Notes under the pieces: generated by a model
Database searches by the model: none
What the model was told of the DNA's origin: nothing
The model's input: only the letters and a program-made list of their open reading frames with translations
In this document: one piece after another, positions 10,874 to 63,366 of the stretch
Numbering within the stretch: the first letter of the stretch is position 1
How the letters are laid out: each line of letters starts with the position of its first letter
Translations under genes and position numbers: made by a program
Source of the DNA: Solobacterium sp.
Lineage (GTDB): Bacteria; Bacillota_I; Bacilli_A; Erysipelotrichales; Erysipelotrichaceae
DNA length: 64,000 nucleotides
Assembly (NCBI GenBank): GCA_017430925.1
Contig: JAFRMA010000011.1
Span: 1 to 64,000, forward strand
Reading direction: 5' to 3'

Positions 10874-12166
10874 TCAGTTAAACGGAGGGAAGATAATGGA
10901 GATCCAGAGAGGATAGAGGATCAAAGAGATCAGTGCCGGTACCCAGCTCATCTTGATTAGATCTTTCTGTGAATAGTTACCAAGACCCATGTACATATTG
11001 ACCGTAGCGGTAGCCATCGGGGTCACGAAGGATGTCAGGGCTGCACAGGTACTCAGAATCATCGGTCCAATAGGGTTGCATCCCATGGCACCACAGGTCA
11101 TTGCCGCAATTGGGACGAATATGGCATCGACAGAACGATTGTTCATGAACTGTGTAAGGACAAACGGAACAGCGAAGAAGACGAAGCAGATCACCAGGTT
11201 ATTGTGCGTACCACCGATCATATTGGCAATCATACCTCCGACAAGATCCGCAGCACCGGTATTGGACAATGCTGAAGCCATAGCGATAACACCAACATAC
11301 TGCATGATGACACCGTGTTGTGTTGCCGCGTTGTATGCTTCCTTGGTACTTAAGACACCTGCCGCGACAGTGATCAAGGCGCCTGTAAGAGAGATCTCCC
11401 ACGCCGCAATCCCAATCTTGCTGGAAAGCATCATCAAGATGATCGTTCCAAAGAAGGCAATGTAGCAGAACGTTTCCTGGATACTGCTGAGCTGTGCCTG
11501 TTCACGCTTTCTTGTCTTTACTTCCGCATCGCTTTCACTTGCTGAAGGGCAGAATTTTGGAGCGAGGAAGATCGCATACAGCACCATCAATATAGCAATT
11601 GGAGCACGTGCTTTGAACAGATCCATCGGACCCATCGCAAAGCCGGAAATTCCATAGGCTTCGAGATAGCCATTGAAGGTAGCCATAGTTGTCAGATTGC
11701 CGCCAAGAGGGAGAGTTAAGACCGTACAGATCGATATGAACCCCAGCGGAAACATCATTTTGGAACGCTCATATCCCAGTTCATCACATACCGCAATTGC
11801 CAGCGGGAAGATGACCGAGAAACAGGCAGCTGAACCACCGGTAACCTGGGCCAGCAGGAAGGTGATCAGGACATATCCGGCCAGGACCATGGTGAAGGAA
11901 CCCTTGCTGACCTTGCTGACAAGCTGGGAGATCTTGTTGACCAGCTGAGTCTTGCCAAAGGCAGCCGAGACCACGAACATGCTGGCAATCAGGATCGTTG
12001 TGGCATTGCCGAAGCCGCTCAACGCTGTCTTCGCATCCAGACATCCTGTAAAGACCAGGGCCATCATGATCAGCAATGCTACGGTAGGACGAGAGATCTT
12101 CGTCTGCAGGAAGCCTACGATAAGGAGCAGAAAGAGTACTAAGCAAATTGATAATTGTGTCGTCAT
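10874..12166 (-). CDS. SLC13/DASS-type transporter, probably citrate or dicarboxylate uptake
   Basis: The 430-residue protein is almost entirely hydrophobic, with about 11-12 membrane segments. It shows the duplicated architecture of the divalent anion:Na+ symporter and ArsB/NhaD superfamily, including SxxTPMATATVNMY near residue 385 and LPLGGNLTTMATFNG in the first half. The first residues are MTTQLSICLVLFLLL. It lies between citF (32 bases upstream) and the esterase gene in the citDEF operon. From this context it is inferred to import citrate or exchange it for a fermentation product; the substrate is not proven by sequence. GAGGAGGATAATATCTT precedes the ATG. Confidence 0.82.
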   Translation of the reverse strand: MTTQLSICLVLFLLLIVGFLQTKISRPTVALLIMMALVFTGCLDAKTALSGFGNATTILIASMFVVSAAFGKTQLVNKISQLVSKVSKGSFTMVLAGYVLITFLLAQVTGGSAACFSVIFPLAIAVCDELGYERSKMMFPLGFISICTVLTLPLGGNLTTMATFNGYLEAYGISGFAMGPMDLFKARAPIAILMVLYAIFLAPKFCPSASESDAEVKTRKREQAQLSSIQETFCYIAFFGTIILMMLSSKIGIAAWEISLTGALITVAAGVLSTKEAYNAATQHGVIMQYVGVIAMASALSNTGAADLVGGMIANMIGGTHNNLVICFVFFAVPFVLTQFMNNRSVDAIFVPIAAMTCGAMGCNPIGPMILSTCAALTSFVTPMATATVNMYMGLGNYSQKDLIKMSWVPALISLILYPLWISIIFPPFN

Positions 12167-12198
12167 AAGATATTATCCTCCTCAAGAATGACGATATG

Positions 12199-13758
12199 TT
12201 AGTCGAAGGAGTAAGGCTTGATCTGCCTTACAACATCGAGAATGGTGCCATCACGTGCTTCCACGATCGCTACCACGTTATCTTCAAACTGCAGTGCTTC
12301 CGGTTCCCCTACAAGGTCATACGCTTTCTCCTGCAGGCTTTCGATAGACACATGCTTGATCCCTGACGCATCCAGGCAATCGATGATATCCTGACGCAAA
12401 GGATTGACCGCAATACCATAATCTGTGACCAGGACATCAACACAATCTCCGGGAGTCGTCACTGTCACTACATCCTTACACACTGTAGCCATACGTCCGC
12501 GAATCAAGGGAGTTACAATAATGCAGCACTTGGAGCCGGCAGCGGTATCCGGATGTCCTCCCGGAGCACCGCGCAGAATGCCATCCGAACCAGTAATCAC
12601 ATTGACATTGAACTTGGTATCGATCTCCAGTGCTGACAGGACGACATAGTCCAATTTATTGACATAGGCACCCTTATTGCCAGCGTTTGCGTATTCACTC
12701 AGATCGATTTCAATATGATGAGGATTGCTGAACAGATGTTTTGCGGCACCTTCATCAAAATCCTGGGTATCAAGGATATAATCCACATAGCCTTTATCCT
12801 GCAAAGCACAGATCGCAGAAGATGTACCACCAAGAGCGAAACTCATCTTGATGCCCGCCTTTTCCATATGTTCTTCCAGGAAACGGTTGACCGCCAGGGA
12901 AGGACCACCTACACCTGTCTGGAAGGAGAAGCCATCCTTGAAGTATGGTGTAGCAGCGATAACATTTGCGACATTCTTAGCCATCATCAGTTCTCTAGGA
13001 TCCTGGGTCAATCTGGCTTCCTTAGTCGCGATCTTTTTGGGATCACCGATCTCATCTACGACAACGACCGCATCCACATCGATACAGGAGATGGATGACG
13101 GAAGGTTCGGGAAAGGAACCAAGGTATCGGTAATAATGACTGTGTGATCCGCATATTTGGCATCATGATTCGCAAAACCCATGGATCCACAGTTGTTCTT
13201 GCCGCCCTGTCCTTTGGCATTACCGCAGCAATCGGAGGTTGCCGCAGCCAGGAAAGCGATATCGATATGGACTTCTCCTGCTTCTACCGCCCTGGGACGA
13301 CCACCATGAGAACGGATAATGACCGGGTTCTTGAGTTTTCCGTTGGAGATTGTTTCTCCGATTCTTCCTCTTACACCTGAAGTTTGTGCTTCTACGATGA
13401 TCCCCTGTTCCATGTAGTCGGCGAAGATGTCCTGTGCTGTTCCCAGGGATGTCGCGGCCACATGGAGATCCTTCAGACCCATTTCTTCCACAAGGACTTT
13501 GCATACCATCGCAGCTACATAGTCTCCGTCACGGAATTCAGTGTGGAAGGAGAAGGTCATACCATCATGAGCACCACACTTCTCACAAGCTTCCCGGATC
13601 GTCTCACAAAGCTTGCTTTCCTGAGGTTTTTCGTGTCTTACGGTCACCGGTGAAGCTTTTTTGACCAGTTTCCCGTCCATGTAATTTTTTCCCTGATAGA
13701 CTTCTTTGCCCTTGACCAGAAGCTCATCCGGGATATTTCTTCCTACCGCATTGATCAT
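12199..13758 (-). CDS. citF: Citrate lyase alpha subunit (citrate CoA-transferase)
   Basis: The 519-residue product matches CitF along its length: the start MINAVGRNIPDELLVKGKEV, the GNAKGQGGKNNCGSMG segment, and the late motif PLRQDIIDCLDASG are typical. CitF swaps acetyl on the acyl carrier protein thioester for citrate, producing citryl-ACP and acetate. It works in the cytoplasmic citrate lyase complex with CitE and CitD. The gene starts 12 bases after citE, with ATAGGAGGTACATCTC before the ATG. E. coli CitF has a similar length (510). Confidence 0.95.
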   Translation of the reverse strand: MINAVGRNIPDELLVKGKEVYQGKNYMDGKLVKKASPVTVRHEKPQESKLCETIREACEKCGAHDGMTFSFHTEFRDGDYVAAMVCKVLVEEMGLKDLHVAATSLGTAQDIFADYMEQGIIVEAQTSGVRGRIGETISNGKLKNPVIIRSHGGRPRAVEAGEVHIDIAFLAAATSDCCGNAKGQGGKNNCGSMGFANHDAKYADHTVIITDTLVPFPNLPSSISCIDVDAVVVVDEIGDPKKIATKEARLTQDPRELMMAKNVANVIAATPYFKDGFSFQTGVGGPSLAVNRFLEEHMEKAGIKMSFALGGTSSAICALQDKGYVDYILDTQDFDEGAAKHLFSNPHHIEIDLSEYANAGNKGAYVNKLDYVVLSALEIDTKFNVNVITGSDGILRGAPGGHPDTAAGSKCCIIVTPLIRGRMATVCKDVVTVTTPGDCVDVLVTDYGIAVNPLRQDIIDCLDASGIKHVSIESLQEKAYDLVGEPEALQFEDNVVAIVEARDGTILDVVRQIKPYSFD

Positions 13759-13770
13759 GAGATGTACCTC

Positions 13771-14691
13771 CTATAACTCTCCGTGGTATACACCACAAGC
13801 TTTTGCCAGTTTGATGATCCTCTTGGCATCCTCAAAGAAGGGAATATCAACCATCTTGCCATCTACCGTATAGACACCGATACCGGCATCCGCCTGGGCT
13901 TGACAGCTCAGAACAAGCTTTTCTGCATAAGCGATCTGTTTTTCCGTCGGAGCGAATGTCTCATGGACAAACTCAATCTGACGGGGATTGATCAGGGACT
14001 TGCCGTCAAAGCCCATCTTATGATTCTGGATCACTTCCTTCTTGAAACCTTCCATATCATCTACATTCGGATACATTGTATCGAAGCACTGGACACCAGC
14101 AGCTCTGGCAGCGAGCAACATCTGTCCTCTTGCCGCAAGCATCTCAATGCCGCCTTCTTCGATCTGCACATGCATGGATTTGCGGAAATCTCCGCCGGAG
14201 ATCGCACATCCAAACATCCTCGGGGATGCTGTGACAATCTCATAGGCATTCATGATGCCCAGGGGACTTTCCAGAGCAGCCATCAACAACGTACGGCCGA
14301 CTTCTACACCAAATTCAATCTCTGCTTTCTCTACCGCCTGATCAACGAGCCGCACCATTTCGGCGTTCTCACACTTAGCGATACGGATTCCATCGGCACC
14401 GGCAGCGACACATACGCGGATATCTTCATGCCAGTGCGGTGTATCCAGTCCGTTGATACGAACGATCACTTCGGTATTTCCATAATCGATCTCCTGCAGA
14501 GCATGATACAGGGAGAAACGAGCCGCATCCTTCTGGTTTTCTGCTACGGCATCCTCGAGGTCGAGGATGATGGAATCACTGCCGTAGATATACGCATCAC
14601 GGATCAGTGCTGGTTTCTGCGCATTCATGAACATCATGGTGCGGCGGAGACGATCTTTTTCCGGTCTTGGACGATGAATTTCCTTTGTCAT
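13771..14691 (-). CDS. citE: Citrate lyase beta subunit (citryl-ACP lyase)
   Basis: From ATG 14691 the protein has 306 residues, close to the 302 of E. coli CitE. It begins MTKEIHRPRPEKDRLRRTMM and contains LDLEDAV, the Glu/Asp metal-binding loop of the HpcH/HpaI/CitE barrel, with RINGLDT and CAISGGDF later. CitE cleaves citryl-ACP to oxaloacetate and acetyl-ACP. The frame is open further upstream to 14757, but ATG 14691 is preferred: it overlaps the citD stop in an ATGA junction and has GGGGAGGAGC upstream, which indicates translational coupling. Confidence 0.94.
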   Translation of the reverse strand: MTKEIHRPRPEKDRLRRTMMFMNAQKPALIRDAYIYGSDSIILDLEDAVAENQKDAARFSLYHALQEIDYGNTEVIVRINGLDTPHWHEDIRVCVAAGADGIRIAKCENAEMVRLVDQAVEKAEIEFGVEVGRTLLMAALESPLGIMNAYEIVTASPRMFGCAISGGDFRKSMHVQIEEGGIEMLAARGQMLLAARAAGVQCFDTMYPNVDDMEGFKKEVIQNHKMGFDGKSLINPRQIEFVHETFAPTEKQIAYAEKLVLSCQAQADAGIGVYTVDGKMVDIPFFEDAKRIIKLAKACGVYHGEL

Positions 14692-14990
14692 TTCCTTACT
14701 GCTCCTCCCCAGGGGACACCTGCTCCTGACGCATTGCCTGCACGGAATACCGCGCATTCCACTCTGGCTTTGATGGTGCAGTCCAGAGCTCCTTTATCGA
14801 CGACGGTGATGATGCCGTCCGAGACTTCCAGTCTGTCCAGCGTCTGCCTTACTGTATCCCGGATCTGCTTTCCGTACTGGTTGATAACACTGCTCTGGAT
14901 GTTGATCTCCAGATGATCTGCCGGTTCTACGGTAACCTGTGCGTCACTGGATTCCAGGGTTCCGGCTATCGCATTCTTTTCAATAATCAT
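14688..14990 (-). CDS. citD: Citrate lyase acyl carrier protein (gamma subunit)
   Basis: The 100-residue protein starts MIIEKNAIAGTLESSDAQV, where the serine of the GTLESSD motif is the expected attachment site of the phosphoribosyl-dephospho-CoA prosthetic group. Length and the internal NQYGKQIRDTV and LDCTIKARVE segments fit CitD. It is the first gene of the operon citD-citE-citF-transporter-esterase. GAGGAGGGCAACACCT stands before the ATG. No citC ligase gene is seen near it; a citX-citG fusion is at 47277. Confidence 0.95.
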   Translation of the reverse strand: MIIEKNAIAGTLESSDAQVTVEPADHLEINIQSSVINQYGKQIRDTVRQTLDRLEVSDGIITVVDKGALDCTIKARVECAVFRAGNASGAGVPWGGAVRK

Positions 14991-15038
14991 AGGTGTTGCC
15001 CTCCTCTTACGGTTTCATCTTAAAAGACATTTAAAATT

Positions 15039-15061
15039 CCGTAAAATTCATAATTTTACGG
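15039..15061. promoter_or_regulatory. Perfect palindrome between citD and lysR, probable LysR operator
   Basis: CCGTAAAATT and AATTTTACGG form a perfect 10-base inverted repeat around CAT. In the minus direction TTTACG of the repeat serves as a -35-like hexamer and TAAGAT lies 17 bases on, giving a plausible citD promoter. LysR proteins typically bind interrupted palindromes in such divergent intergenic regions. A second small inverted repeat, CATTCC-TTTTT-GGAATG, is at 15068-15084, nearer the regulator gene. Confidence 0.65.
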
Positions 15062-15110
15062 ATTAACCATTCCTTTTTGGAATGTTATAGTATATACAGG
15101 AGACACCTAA

Positions 15111-15977
15111 ATGGAAGAAAAAGATTATGAATTGCTAAGAATACTGAAAGAGACCAGAAACATTACCAGGACAGCCGAAGAAATGTACATTACCCAGTCA
15201 GCGTTGTCCAAGCGTATTCGGAAGATCGAAGAAGAGCTTGGCATAGACCTGCTGATCCGGTCTCGTACCGGTGCTGTCTTTACGCCTGAGGGAGAAATAG
15301 TGGCGGAATATTGTCTGAAAGCAGAAAAGGAAATGAATACAATGCGGAATATGCTGGATTCCCTTTCCGGGGAAGTGAGCGGTACATTGCGTGTAGGATT
15401 ATCCATGAATTATGCCTTGTTTATTCTTCCGCAGCTCCTGGTCAGTTTTTGCAAGAAGTATCCCCGAGTAAACTTAGATGTCACCTCCAAACAAAGCCGT
15501 GAATTGTATGGCGAACTAGTCAGCGGAGATCTGGATCTAGGAGTTCTGCGCGGGGAATTTGCCTGGGATGGACCAAAATATGCCCTTGCCGAAGAAAGAT
15601 TATGTGTCATCTGTAGTGAGCAGAATAAAGATCTTCCTTTAGATATGCAGATGTATATCGAACGAGAATCAGATGTAATGCAGATAGCGATGATCAAGCG
15701 ATGGCTTCGGGAACAGGGGATTCCCCGACCGACATCTCGTCTCCATACAGATTCCATCATCAGCTGTGTGCAGATGGTCGAGAATGGCCTGGGATGGGCT
15801 ATCGTTCCTGAGATTGCCCTAAAGGATTTTCATGGTGTAAAACTTCCCTGTGTGTTTGATAATGGGGAATCATTAGTACGCCGAAGCTGGCTGATGTGCC
15901 GCAGTGAGGTTGTGCATCTGCCGCAAATTCAGGCTTTTATTGAAGAAGTGCTTCACTTTGCCCGAACAAGTTTGTAA
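15111..15977 (+). CDS. LysR-family regulator, probably of the citrate lyase operon
   Basis: The 288-residue protein has an N-terminal winged helix-turn-helix with ITRTAEEMYITQSALSKRIR at about residues 18-37, matching the LysR recognition helix. A periplasmic-binding-like effector domain covers about residues 90-288. It is transcribed away from citD with 120 bases between the two starts, and a perfect palindrome lies there. This arrangement is classic for LysR control of a divergent operon, so citrate or a related metabolite is a likely effector. CAGGAGACACCTAA precedes the ATG. Confidence 0.88.
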   Translation: MEEKDYELLRILKETRNITRTAEEMYITQSALSKRIRKIEEELGIDLLIRSRTGAVFTPEGEIVAEYCLKAEKEMNTMRNMLDSLSGEVSGTLRVGLSMNYALFILPQLLVSFCKKYPRVNLDVTSKQSRELYGELVSGDLDLGVLRGEFAWDGPKYALAEERLCVICSEQNKDLPLDMQMYIERESDVMQIAMIKRWLREQGIPRPTSRLHTDSIISCVQMVENGLGWAIVPEIALKDFHGVKLPCVFDNGESLVRRSWLMCRSEVVHLPQIQAFIEEVLHFARTSL

Positions 15978-16138: not shown

Positions 16139-16753
16139 ATGGGATTATTTGACAAACTGCTGAAAGAAGGCACAGAAAAACTTAAGGAAGTCACAAAAGA
16201 AGTCACCAGCGAAGAAAACAAAGAGAAAGCTTCTGCGTTCCTGAATTCACTTAAGGAGACGGTCAGCGAAGGCGCTGAGGCAATCAAGGAAGCCGCCAAA
16301 GAAGCCACTACAGAAGAAAACAAGGAGAAGGCAGCCGCATTCATCCATTCACTCAAGAATACGATTGAGAAAGAAGCAGGACAGCCGAAAAAGACCGCAG
16401 AAACACCCGTATACGATGATTCCATCTACGAGGAATACGAAGATGGGAAGACCTGCCGGCAGAGGATCCTCGAGATCCTGGCCAATGAATTCCCGGAATA
16501 TACCGTGAGAGAGAACGTATCTCCGCAGGAATTCCATGGCGTAGGCCGTTTCATGGATTATTCCATCGTGGTATACAAGGACGGTACGCCGAAGCTGGTG
16601 ATCATGTTAATAGGGAAGACCACCACCTCCCACCGTGAATACCGCTGGTCACGTGAAGAAGCAGAGAAACACGGTTATCCGTTCATCAACTTTGTCAAAC
16701 ACTATCCGAACAGACCGGAATATATTTCCAACAGATTACATCAGTACTTGTAA
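16139..16753 (+). CDS. Unknown protein: amphipathic helical repeats plus compact C-terminal domain
   Basis: I do not recognise this 204-residue protein. Residues 1-80 are Lys/Glu/Ala-rich and made of two near copies of a unit of about 35-38 residues, each containing (S/T)EENKEKA(S/A)AF(L/I)(N/H)SLK, so a helical, coiled-coil-like region is likely. Residues 100-204 form a globular domain with ILANEFPEYTVRENV, then MDYSIVVYKDGTPKLVIML, and RWSREEAEKHGYPFINFV. The Asp plus strand-strand-Lys pattern (D-x(n)-LVIMLIGK) faintly resembles a PD-(D/E)XK nuclease, but the middle acidic residue is absent. GGAGGTTTGGC precedes the ATG. It lies 150 bases upstream of the reverse transcriptase on the same strand, so a shared transcript is possible. 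Confidence 0.65.
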   Translation: MGLFDKLLKEGTEKLKEVTKEVTSEENKEKASAFLNSLKETVSEGAEAIKEAAKEATTEENKEKAAAFIHSLKNTIEKEAGQPKKTAETPVYDDSIYEEYEDGKTCRQRILEILANEFPEYTVRENVSPQEFHGVGRFMDYSIVVYKDGTPKLVIMLIGKTTTSHREYRWSREEAEKHGYPFINFVKHYPNRPEYISNRLHQYL

Positions 16754-16766
16754 TCTTGGAATACAC

Positions 16767-16896
16767 AAGAAAGAGAAACGCAGAAATTCGCCTGTGATGG
16801 CCGCAGCACGATCCCTTACATGACTTTACAGGCAGTCGGATCCTGTACCGGCCGGTAGCGTAAGCACAGCTTACTTCAAAGCATTTTCTCTTTCTT
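16767..16896 (+). ncRNA. Candidate structured non-coding RNA in front of the reverse transcriptase
   Basis: The 149 bases between the helical-repeat gene and the RT hold no gene but much secondary structure. The ends pair perfectly over 12 bases: AAGAAAGAGAAA (16767-16778) with TTTCTCTTTCTT (16885-16896). Inside are ACAGG (16828-16832) with CCTGT (16842-16846), alternative GATCC (16810-16814) with GGATC (16838-16842), the palindrome TACCGGCCGGTA (16846-16857), and a GTAAGC-ACA-GCTTAC hairpin (16860-16874). The RT start is 7 bases after the 3' arm and has no Shine-Dalgarno sequence. The layout resembles the paired ends of retron msr-msd RNAs or the RNAs before some defence RTs. Expression and function are inferred. 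Confidence 0.5.
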
Positions 16897-16902
16897 TTTT
16901 CT

Positions 16903-18123
16903 ATGATGAATACACTTTTAGATACATTATCCTCCAGGGATACCTGGCAGGAATTCCACGACTATAAACAGGAAAAGAACCAGCTCACAAAAAAAGAACT
17001 CAAAGAACTGGATATTTTTATTGCGGAAGAAAAGTACCTGCAGGTAACCGGTACGATGTCTTTTTCCCTGCCGGAGAAGAAAGAGATCACAAAAGCCGGT
17101 TCTTCCCGCAAACGTATCGTATACTCCTACAACGAGGAAGAAACCTGGGTGCTGAAACTTCTGACCTACAAACTATACAAGTATGATGACAGGATCTCGG
17201 AACACTGTTATTCGTTCCGGAGGAATCTTACTGCCGGAAATGCATTTGAACGGATACGCAGAATTCCTGATCTGGATCACAAATATGTCCTGAAACTGGA
17301 TATCCATGACTACTTCAATTCCATCGATGTGGAACAGCTGATCGTTATCCTGCGTGAGGTTATTGCGGATGATCCGCCTCTGTTGGACTTTCTCTGTGCT
17401 CTGCTGAGACAACACAAGTGTGTGTGGCGTGGAGAGATCCTTGAAGAGAACCGGGGAGCCATGGCCGGTGTACCGCTGGCGAGCTTCTTCGCAAATCTCT
17501 ACCTGCGCGATCTTGACCAGCTCATGCATGACGCGCATATTCCGTACTTCCGTTATTCCGATGACATGATCCTGTTCCTTGACGATTCAGTACAAACAGA
17601 GGAATACTTTCAGAGAATCCGGTCTTTCTTATCCTCCAAAGGTCTGACCCTGAACATGGACAAGTACCATGTCTCTCCGCCGGAAGAACCCTGGGAGTTT
17701 CTGGGCTTCCGCTACAACGGAGGAAAGATCGACCTCGCAGAAATGACGATCCGCAAGATGCAGGCCAAGATCCGCCGCAAAGCCAACCGGATCTACCGGA
17801 ACCGTACGGAAAAAAAGATCAATTATGATAAAGCAGCCCGGACCATGATCCGGCATTTCGACAACCTGTTCTACGATCTTACCGGAAGCGGGGAATACAC
17901 ATGGATCCGCTACTACTTCCCGGTCATTACCACTGCGGAAGGTCTGCAGAAGATCGATCAGACCATGGTACAGTACCTGCGTTATCTGTACTCCGGAAGA
18001 CATTACAAAGGTAACTACAAGATTACCTATGAACACCTGAAATCTCTGGGATATACCTCGCTTGTCCATGAATACTACCAATGGAAGAAGGAGAACCGGT
18101 CCCTGGCTGAACAGAATACTTAG
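16903..18123 (+). CDS. Solitary reverse transcriptase with YSDD active site
   Basis: The 406-residue protein has the RT palm. Motif A is KLDIHDYFNSID with catalytic Asp133; motif B is RGAMAGVPLASFFANLY (about 184-200); motif C is YFRYSDDMILF with Asp220 and Asp221; a motif D/E-like NMDKYHV and WEFLGFRY follow near 251-271. The last 120 residues (KMQAKIRRKANRIYRNR, then TWIRYYFPVI and YLYSGRHYKGNYKITYEHLK) look like a basic thumb/X-like region. There is no HNH endonuclease domain, no visible group II intron structure, and no retron-type YADD or VTG motif. It therefore falls among the unassigned bacterial RTs, several of which act in phage defence. ATG 16903 and ATG 16906 are both possible; neither has a ribosome-binding site. 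Confidence 0.85.
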   Translation: MMNTLLDTLSSRDTWQEFHDYKQEKNQLTKKELKELDIFIAEEKYLQVTGTMSFSLPEKKEITKAGSSRKRIVYSYNEEETWVLKLLTYKLYKYDDRISEHCYSFRRNLTAGNAFERIRRIPDLDHKYVLKLDIHDYFNSIDVEQLIVILREVIADDPPLLDFLCALLRQHKCVWRGEILEENRGAMAGVPLASFFANLYLRDLDQLMHDAHIPYFRYSDDMILFLDDSVQTEEYFQRIRSFLSSKGLTLNMDKYHVSPPEEPWEFLGFRYNGGKIDLAEMTIRKMQAKIRRKANRIYRNRTEKKINYDKAARTMIRHFDNLFYDLTGSGEYTWIRYYFPVITTAEGLQKIDQTMVQYLRYLYSGRHYKGNYKITYEHLKSLGYTSLVHEYYQWKKENRSLAEQNT

Positions 18124-18192: not shown

Positions 18193-19878
18193 TTATAATT
18201 TGATCTTTACCGATGCTTTGCCGGCTTTCTGGGAAACTGCTTTTAATGTTACTTCTGTTCCTTCATTACCGCGGATATACCAGGTGACTTTTTTCTTCAG
18301 CGGTTCCTGCTCGATGTTGGCGGGACCGTAGACAGAGTACCTTGTCTTCACGGATGAGAAGCCCTCCAGCTGACCGATCTTCTGTACAGCCTTTCCGTCA
18401 GCGATCTCCGCCCCTTCCAGCGTAACTTCAATATCCCTGGCAAGTTTCAGTTTGACAAACTCACTGGTCGCGTACGAGGGCATGAAGCCGGTATTGCCGA
18501 GGACAGCTTCAATCTTGTATAGTCCCTCTGCCAGTTTTTCGGACTTTTCTTCGGTGAAGATAAGATGAGGCATGGTCTTTGCGTGGCGGAGGATATAACG
18601 TGTATGTTTCTGTACTTCCTGCGGGAGGAACTGGACAGGAGGGTTCTGAAGCAGGAATTTCTTATCCGGACCGCCGATCTCTATCGTACCGAGCTGCGGA
18701 TGTTCAAAAGTTGTCCATTCCTTGTAGAAATCATTCAGACCATTCTTGTCGACCCACGCCAGGAACTTTCTCTGGTTTTCTTCTTCCTCTTCTTCCGTGA
18801 GTTTTTTAGGCTTTGGATATTCAGGAATCATCCCGCACTGTTCCGCCAGATTCCAGGTCTCAACAGAGTGACAGAAGACACCGTTACCGTAATACAGATA
18901 ATCATCGAGAGAGCCGTCAGCCGGTGCTTTACTGTCAATACCAAGATAGTCATCCTTGATCCGCAGCTGATGATACCCTGTTTCTTCTTTGGCAATCTTC
19001 ATGAACGCCTTGAACATCTCCTGATCTTTCTGGTCTGCCTGGGATGCCGGAATACCTGCGGGCGGGTACAGATACATACCGCCGGAGGTGTGGAAGATGA
19101 TTGAACTCACAAGATTTCTCTGTTTACTGATCCATTCGATCAGATTCCGGGATTCAATGACCTGCCCCGGGTACAGACCGCCGCCCGGCTGTTTATTTTC
19201 CGGATTCCAGTTCATCGGATAATTGCGGTTTAGATCCAGTCCGTACTTTGAAGGAGCACTCTTTATTTTTACCCCGTCATATTCATTGATCAGACCTTCA
19301 CTGTACACATTGTAGAAATCCCCGGTCGTCTCATCTGCCTGTCTGCGGATGAGCATGCGCTTATCCTTGGGATCTTTCTTCCACAGACCAAACGGTGTCT
19401 TTACAAGCATATTGCGGATCACGCCGTCACCATCAATATCGGAGGGCACAAGTCCAGGCATTTCCGTTTCAAACGGATAAGGGATATTGATACTGCGGAT
19501 CATCTCCGGATGCGTCAGATAGAATTCAGATCCATCCGCGACAGGTCTCGGCATGATGTAGAAAGTAGAGTTCTTCAGCAATGCCGCCACAGCTTCATCT
19601 TCAAGATTACTGAGCAGCGCATCTGCCAGATACATTGCGCACATACTGCCTGTGACTTCACCGGCATGAACATGTCCTACTGCCAGATATCCTGGTTTTT
19701 CGTCATATTCTCCGGCAGTTGTGTCTGTGACAGCGAGTACCCACATCTCCCTTTCCTCTGTCGTTTTTCCGATGGAGGTAAGACGGGTATACTTTGGATA
19801 TTTATCGGCGTATTCATGCAGAATATCCGTGATCTCCTGGTAGTTGTAGTAATGATCATACTTATAGGATGTATTCAT
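18193..19878 (-). CDS. M14-family zinc carboxypeptidase
   Basis: From ATG 19878 the protein has 561 residues. The zinc ligands HxxE are in GHVHAGEVTG, the distal His lies in IIFHTSGG, and the catalytic Glu is likely in HSVETWN; DLNRNYP is the substrate-binding Asn-Arg motif of the family. The C-terminal 150 residues look like a beta-rich domain (EVTLEGAEIADGKAV). No signal peptide is seen, so it may act in the cytoplasm, or export is not Sec-dependent. An upstream in-frame start at 19935 is rejected because AGAAGGTCTTCT lies before ATG 19878. Confidence 0.85.
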   Translation of the reverse strand: MNTSYKYDHYYNYQEITDILHEYADKYPKYTRLTSIGKTTEEREMWVLAVTDTTAGEYDEKPGYLAVGHVHAGEVTGSMCAMYLADALLSNLEDEAVAALLKNSTFYIMPRPVADGSEFYLTHPEMIRSINIPYPFETEMPGLVPSDIDGDGVIRNMLVKTPFGLWKKDPKDKRMLIRRQADETTGDFYNVYSEGLINEYDGVKIKSAPSKYGLDLNRNYPMNWNPENKQPGGGLYPGQVIESRNLIEWISKQRNLVSSIIFHTSGGMYLYPPAGIPASQADQKDQEMFKAFMKIAKEETGYHQLRIKDDYLGIDSKAPADGSLDDYLYYGNGVFCHSVETWNLAEQCGMIPEYPKPKKLTEEEEEENQRKFLAWVDKNGLNDFYKEWTTFEHPQLGTIEIGGPDKKFLLQNPPVQFLPQEVQKHTRYILRHAKTMPHLIFTEEKSEKLAEGLYKIEAVLGNTGFMPSYATSEFVKLKLARDIEVTLEGAEIADGKAVQKIGQLEGFSSVKTRYSVYGPANIEQEPLKKKVTWYIRGNEGTEVTLKAVSQKAGKASVKIKL

Positions 19879-19956
19879 AGAAGACCTTCTTTCTCTATAG
19901 ATAAAGAATATCACATCACAGGTAAACCACTGCACTCAGAATTCATAACTATAGTA

Positions 19957-63274: not shown

Positions 63275-63283
63275 GATATAAAA

Positions 63284-63361
63284 AATGGTACACCCAGGCA
63301 GAGGTTTGTATGGCTGCTTCCTTCCGGACCTGACCAGGTTCTATACGTACCTGTTGTACCA
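63284..63361 (-). ncRNA. ffs: Small signal recognition particle RNA (4.5S-type)
   Basis: The minus strand contains the invariant apical segment GGTCAGGTCCGGAAGGAAGC followed by AGCC, and the ends TGGTACA and TGTACCA pair to close a hairpin of about 75 bases. A T6 run (TTTTTTATAT) ends it. This is the classic small SRP RNA that binds Ffh. A matched promoter is upstream. It lies between the histidine phosphatase gene and tadA. Confidence 0.93.
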
Positions 63362-63366
63362 TTGGC

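What the first reader, a model, noticed from the sequence alone, without database searches (positions are those of the whole stretch)
16754..18123. Solitary YSDD reverse transcriptase with a compact structured non-coding leader
Seen: an RT with all catalytic motifs (Asp133, Asp220, Asp221) and a basic C-terminal region but no HNH domain, no intron, and no retron YADD or VTG motif. The 149 bases before it hold no gene, yet their ends pair perfectly over 12 bases (16767-16778 with 16885-16896), and several hairpins lie between, including TACCGGCCGGTA and GTAAGC-ACA-GCTTAC. The ATG is 7 bases after the 3' arm and has no ribosome-binding site. Known: retrons and some defence RTs (for example DRT2 and DRT9) use an RNA template encoded right upstream. 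Inference: this may be an RNA-templated RT system, possibly antiviral, of a type not assigned here.
Basis: partly seen in the sequence, partly recalled or inferred. Interest (0 to 1): 0.82.

Follow-up and report, generated by a model that had tools for sequence, protein, structure and literature searches.

The report
UG26 reverse transcriptase with RT-5 RNA
A bacterial DNA-making enzyme of a catalogued but untested candidate anti-virus family (UG26) is encoded next to its own folded RNA (known to Rfam only as 'RT-5') and a dedicated partner protein, and comparison of 43 relatives shows that the RNA is a real, knotted structure that probably forms part of the enzyme's working core.

Summary
The RT (16903-18123) belongs to PADLOC family RT_UG26 (485 bits; next family 114), a candidate defence RT with no tested member that I could find. 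The leader is Rfam RF03026 'RT-5' (74 bits, cut-off 45.7). Forty-three relatives support a larger fold than Rfam's: an outer 12-bp helix, a 5' hairpin and a pseudoknot (95.7% of cells paired; 396 cells with compensatory double changes versus 43-81 in slid controls). The RNA lies beside the RT in all 46 relatives with enough sequence; in an archaeon it lies downstream, so it is not merely a leader. The gene at 16139-16753 is a dedicated partner: in 196 family genomes every homologue sits directly upstream of this RNA and RT. Its C-terminal domain has a Vsr/DUF559-like nuclease fold without conserved catalytic residues. Most likely this is a three-part, DRT-like defence complex making cDNA from a short RNA template. 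The conserved single strand UUCAAA (16875-16880), placed like the DRT10 template, is the best template candidate; the DRT10 A-B-A' repeat signature is absent. Template, product and defence are untested.

The parts
16139..16753 (+). Partner gene (204 aa): helical N-terminus with two ~34-aa repeats; C-terminal domain (aa ~103-204) of Vsr/DUF559-like PD-(D/E)XK fold, apparently without catalytic residues
   Evidence: Homologues directly upstream of the RNA-RT pair; AlphaFold2 and structural matches I-Bth0305I Z 9.2, NGO0050 Z 8.4, Vsr Z 7.6; 25 of 28 members match PADLOC RTasCOG2852; no conserved D/E/H/K column
16767..16896 (+). RT-5 non-coding RNA, 130 nt, extended structure (P1, P2, pseudoknot, P3-P5 arm, P6)
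   Evidence: Rfam RF03026 74 bits over 16786-16888; covariance model R1 141.5 bits (the window was one of the 14 sequences that built R1); covariation
16767..16778 (+). P1 5' strand (outer helix, not in the Rfam structure)
   Evidence: 12 of 12 pairs with compensatory changes in 43 sequences
16885..16896 (+). P1 3' strand
16780..16789 (+). P2 hairpin (weak in the window, stronger in relatives)
   Evidence: 3 of 3 pairs with compensatory changes, 96.1% paired; the window has one C-U mismatch
16790..16795 (+). Pseudoknot strand 5' (GCCUGU)
   Evidence: Pairs with 16828-16833; 97.6% paired, 4 of 6 pairs with double changes, although the pseudoknot was not part of the model used to align
16828..16833 (+). 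Pseudoknot strand 3' (ACAGGC) in the loop of P5
16799..16853 (+). P3 (16799-16803/16849-16853), P4 (16806-16814/16838-16846), P5 (16822-16825/16834-16837) arm
   Evidence: 92-98% paired, compensatory changes in nearly all pairs
16815..16821 (+). Loop T1 between P4 and P5: 6-14 nt in nearly all relatives, the most variable part; weaker template candidate
16860..16874 (+). P6 hairpin GUAAGC-ACA-GCUUAC, candidate template boundary
   Evidence: 6 of 6 pairs with compensatory changes
16875..16884 (+). Segment T2 UUCAAAGCAU; UUCAAA strongly conserved and unpaired; best template candidate by position
   Evidence: Commonest base 0.67-1.00 per position over 16875-16880; same place as the DRT10 template
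16903..18123 (+). UG26 reverse transcriptase, 406 aa; D133 (17299-17301), D220-D221 (17560-17565)
   Evidence: PADLOC RT_UG26 485 bits; AF2 pLDDT 93
18028..18030 (+). Codon of Tyr376, the only C-terminal hydroxyl residue invariant in 40 UG26 RTs: candidate protein primer
   Evidence: role inferred by analogy with DRT9/DRT10

Best explanation
A UG26 defence-associated RT module of three parts: a partner protein with a degenerate Vsr-like nuclease fold, the RT-5 RNA, and the RT. The RNA is co-transcribed with or processed from the operon, folds into a pseudoknotted scaffold and is held by the RT (inferred). The RT copies a short single-stranded part of it, most likely the conserved UUCAAA between hairpin P6 and helix P1, with P6 as the 5' template boundary, probably primed by a C-terminal residue such as Tyr376 (inferred). 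The cDNA, alone or through the partner protein, drives an anti-phage response (inferred). Shown here: family membership of RT and RNA, the RNA fold by covariation, its tight linkage to the RT, and the dedicated partner. Not shown: which bases are copied, what DNA is made, and defence.
For: RT_UG26 at 485 bits in the window; RT_UG26 also matches all 40 homologues. RT-5 RNA by Rfam and by a model built here. Within the family the same 21 of 196 genomes carry both; in G173 the two are 12 kb apart. RNA beside the RT in 46 of 46 relatives with enough flank (45 by model; L045 by fold). Covariation incl. pseudoknot. RNA up to 187 nt from the RT start, and downstream of the RT in archaeal L044, so it is a separate RNA. 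Partner found only next to the pair. The RT model resembles the DRT9 and DRT2 RTs that hold ncRNAs (Z 22.6 and 21.3), and the UG17 (DRT10), Drt3a and Drt9 models are among the next-best families. T2 lies at nt 109-118 of 130; template and A' of DRT10 at about 107-119 of 137, directly after a stem-loop.
Against: A-B-A' repeats are not enriched in T1 or T2 (p 0.86-1.0). Structural matches are better to group II intron RTs (Z 29) than to DRT9. Neighbours show no recurrent defence genes, and no full-length relatives were found in phages, plasmids or viral contigs. No expression or phage data. RTs of G173 (L080), L069, L070 and L095 give no hit with model R1.
Confidence: 0.7

Rival explanations
1. 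The RNA is a scaffold and regulator only: the RT makes DNA without copying it (as Class 1/Abi RTs do), or copies another RNA.
For: No repeat signature in either loop; the most conserved unpaired bases (GGU, UUCAAA) could be protein contacts.
Against: Class 2 UG systems studied so far use cis-encoded ncRNAs as templates (PMC13174585); UG17, Drt3a and Drt9 models are among the next-best families; the RT is compact, 406 aa, with no extra domain seen in the model.
Confidence: 0.2
2. Cis-acting leader that controls translation of the RT (the P1 strand lies just before the ATG, no Shine-Dalgarno).
For: 0-23 nt between P1 and ATG in most relatives; partner has an SD, RT has none.
Against: Distance reaches 187 nt in others and the RNA lies downstream of the RT in L044; the fold is far more elaborate than such a role needs.
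Confidence: 0.08
3. Group II intron-derived or other non-defence RT (housekeeping, repair or a degenerate intron RNP).
For: Closest solved structures are group II RTs; chromosomal context without recurrent defence neighbours.
Against: No maturase domain; not over the group II cut-off; RNA matches RT-5 only, no group II hit; patchy distribution, 21 of 196 family genomes, typical of accessory systems.
Confidence: 0.15
4. A retron with a short msr/msd.
For: RNA next to an RT.
Against: Matches the UG26 model at 485 bits, retron St85 model only 56 against cut-off 235; no retron Rfam family matched.
Confidence: 0.02

Closest known systems
PADLOC RT_UG26 (candidate DRT, untested as far as I could find)
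   Same: Full-length match, 485 bits; partner matches PADLOC RTasCOG2852
   Different: No difference found; this is a member. The protein models do not cover the RNA
Rfam RF03026 RT-5 RNA
   Same: Full-length match, 74 bits
   Different: The Rfam structure lacks P1, P2 and the pseudoknot found here
DRT10 (UG17 + SLATT + ncRNA)
   Same: Three parts: accessory protein, ncRNA of about 130-137 nt with a central helix and side hairpins, RT; same place for the candidate template
   Different: Partner has a Vsr-like fold, not SLATT; A-B-A' repeats not enriched; UG17 HMM only 99 bits
DRT9 (UG28 + ncRNA)
   Same: RT beside ncRNA; conserved short single-stranded template-like segment; C-terminal tyrosines; structural match Z 22.6
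   Different: No poly-U tract; partner protein present; Drt9 HMM only 70 bits
Group II intron RT (GsI-IIC)
   Same: RT and thumb fold, Z 29.3
   Different: No maturase domain, no intron RNA

Membership tests
RT_UG26 (PADLOC) | Full-length match to the family HMM, far above other RT families | tested here: met
   485.4 bits, next 113.6; all 40 homologues match
RT_UG26 (PADLOC) | Shown anti-phage activity | not testable with these tools
   No experiment; no paper found
RF03026 RT-5 RNA | Score above the gathering threshold | tested here: met
   74.0 against 45.7 bits
RTasCOG2852 partner | Match to PADLOC model PDLC03793 | tested here: met
   E 1.5e-4 for the window, best 4.1e-9, 25 of 28 members
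PD-(D/E)XK / Vsr-like nuclease (partner) | Core fold | tested here: met
   Predicted model, Z 9.2-7.6 over 85-89 residues
PD-(D/E)XK / Vsr-like nuclease (partner) | Conserved catalytic acidic/His/Lys residues | tested here: not met
   No such column at 90% or more in 28 homologues
Class 2 DRT | ncRNA encoded in cis with conserved structure | tested here: met
Class 2 DRT | Position within the Class 2 clade of a UG tree | tested here: inconclusive
   Only HMM scores (UG4, UG27, UG17, Drt3a, Drt9 among the next best); reference RTs could not be gathered for a tree
Class 2 DRT | ncRNA-templated cDNA | not testable with these tools
   No cDNA sequencing
DRT10-type repeat addition | A-B-A' pattern enriched in the template loop | tested here: not met
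   T1 p 0.86/0.94, T2 p 0.96/1.0; the template loop itself is inferred
DRT10 | SLATT partner | tested here: not met
   Partner has a Vsr-like fold; no SLATT match in Pfam
DRT9/DRT10 protein priming | Conserved C-terminal hydroxyl residue at the active site | tested here: inconclusive
   Tyr376 invariant in 40; distance to the active site not measured
Group II intron RT/maturase | NCBIfam cut-off, maturase domain, intron RNA | tested here: not met
   106 against 300 bits; Pfam RVT_1 only; no Rfam intron
Retron | Retron RT model cut-off and msr/msd RNA | tested here: not met
   56 against 235 bits; no retron RNA

The most novel reading that the evidence does not exclude
UG26/RT-5 is a mechanistically new DRT type: a pseudoknotted template RNA, architecturally reminiscent of telomerase RNA (template, boundary helix, pseudoknot), on which the RT makes a short or homopolymeric cDNA without the A-B-A' realignment of DRT10, with a catalytically dead nuclease-fold protein as sensor or effector of that DNA.
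Probability: 0.3. Interest if true: 0.8.

Novelty: new member of a known kind. Interest (0 to 1): 0.5.

Why it matters
It joins three catalogue entries (an uncharacterised RT family, an orphan Rfam RNA and an RT-associated protein) into one dedicated, testable module, and gives the RNA a full pseudoknotted structure. It predicts which bases could be the template and which tyrosine could prime, so one cDNA-sequencing experiment would show what UG26 enzymes make. As ncRNA-templated UG RTs have been proposed as relatives of telomerase (PMC12632851), a further member with a pseudoknotted RNA bears on that question.

Tried and rejected
A-B-A' (telomerase/DRT10) repeats in T1 and T2: not enriched. 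TACCGGCCGGTA hairpin: rejected, it is part of P3. UG27, UG17 and Drt9 relatives in the phylum for a reference tree: none usable (the UG17 hit, eight identical copies in one genome, is probably a group II intron). UG26 in phages, plasmids and viral contigs: no full-length relative. Defence-island test: no recurrent defence neighbour among 79. Empty-site test: the peptidase gene occurs without the module in related genomes, but flanks differ too much to define an insertion site. Promoter and terminator scan: no more than chance. The papers that, from my own knowledge, defined UG26 and RT-5 (NAR 2022 and 2017) are not held, so whether their authors already linked RT-5 to UG26 is unknown.

Full report
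What is there. The ORF 16903-18123 encodes a 406-aa RT. D133, D220 and D221 are invariant among 40 homologues. The RT matches PADLOC RT_UG26 at 485 bits; the next family scores 114, and all 40 homologues match RT_UG26. It is below the curated cut-offs of the group II intron and retron RT models and has only an RVT_1 domain.

The leader. Rfam places 16786-16888 in RF03026 'RT-5', 74 bits against a gathering score of 45.7. From my own knowledge the RT-numbered families were named for their closeness to RT genes, so such an association is not new. Rfam's structure covers one arm and the 3' hairpin. I aligned 14 relatives by sequence alone, wrote down an extended structure, and counted pairs: 95.4% of cells paired, 25 pairs with changes on both sides against 3-8 in slid controls. 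A covariance model then gave 56 sense matches in 63 sources and one weak antisense match to an RNA already found. On 43 distinct sequences 95.7% of cells pair, 41 of 45 pairs have changes on both sides, and 396 cells have double changes against 43-81 in slid versions. The pseudoknot GCCUGU/ACAGGC was not part of the model that fitted the alignment, yet 97.6% of its cells pair, with double changes at 4 of 6 pairs.

Linkage. Of the 48 UG26 loci from the genome collection, two are cut off by contig ends (L022, L040). Of the other 46, 45 have a model hit beside the RT, and L045 folds into the same shape. The distance from RNA to start codon is 0-23 nt in most relatives and up to 187 nt in others. 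In a Methanomassiliicoccaceae archaeon the RNA lies downstream of the RT (L044). It is therefore a separate RNA, not only a leader. In 196 genomes of the family the same 21 carry RT-5 and UG26; in one (G173) the RNA hit is below the threshold and 12 kb away, and its RT has no recognised RNA.

The partner. The gene 16139-16753 has homologues directly upstream of the RNA in Erysipelotrichaceae, Bacteroidales, Lachnospiraceae and one Clostridiales locus. In the same 196 genomes the partner profile finds only copies next to the RNA-RT pair, in 17 genomes. AlphaFold2 gives a confident C-terminal domain of Vsr/DUF559-like fold (I-Bth0305I Z 9.2, 87 residues, rmsd 2.3; NGO0050 Z 8.4; Vsr Z 7.6). 25 of 28 members match PADLOC RTasCOG2852. 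No acidic, histidine or lysine column is conserved at 90%, so catalysis is doubtful. The N-terminal part is helical with two repeats.

Mechanism. Class 2 UG systems studied so far hold cis-encoded ncRNAs as templates (PMC13174585): DRT9 copies a poly-U tract with tyrosine priming (PMC12483538), DRT10 copies a short loop by A-B-A' realignment with serine or tyrosine priming and needs a SLATT protein (PMC12632851). The RT-5 RNA resembles these in size and plan: an outer helix, side hairpins, and a single-stranded segment between the last hairpin and the outer helix. That segment, UUCAAA, is among the most conserved unpaired parts, as the templates of DRT9 and DRT3 are; the DRT10 template is not conserved. 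The most variable loop (T1) is the second candidate. A-B-A' repeats are not enriched in either, so DRT10-type repeat addition is not supported. Tyr376 is the only C-terminal hydroxyl residue invariant in 40 RTs. Template, product, priming and defence are inference.

Limits. I could not build a tree with reference UG families, and the papers that defined UG26 and RT-5 are not held. The phylogenetic class therefore rests on HMM scores. The alignment used for one search was fitted to all helices except the pseudoknot; the sequence-only alignment is the check on that, but there 10 of the 12 P1 pairs never vary, so the case for P1 rests on the wider set.

Noticed in passing
L044:7347-7489: In a Methanomassiliicoccaceae archaeon MAG the RT-5 RNA lies downstream of a UG26 RT, with its own compensated P1 helix.
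   Followed up: yes
L024, L028, L031, L033, L034, L036, L047, between RNA and RT: Repeat-like sequence (GACACGAGACACGGG..., with a CCCCCTTTTAAGGGGG-like palindrome in some) sits between the RNA and the RT in several Bacteroidales.
   Followed up: no
16166-16261 and 16268-16363: Two direct repeats (73% identical DNA, about 34 aa) in the N-terminal part of the partner protein; repeat number seems to vary among relatives.
   Followed up: no
L095 (G181:C29:52026-53222): A divergent UG26-like RT without a detectable RT-5 RNA, about 35 kb from a complete module in the same contig.
   Followed up: no
L068 (G173:C12:16334-16434): Sub-threshold RT-5 match beside an IS200/IS605-type transposase-like gene, 12 kb from that genome's UG26 RT; chance or a displaced RNA.
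   Followed up: no
10874-15977: Citrate lyase subunits, a citrate-type transporter and a divergent LysR regulator lie next to the module.
   Followed up: no
18193-19935: M14 zinc carboxypeptidase with several paralogues in the genus.
   Followed up: no
63279-63365: Bacterial small SRP RNA on the minus strand.
   Followed up: no
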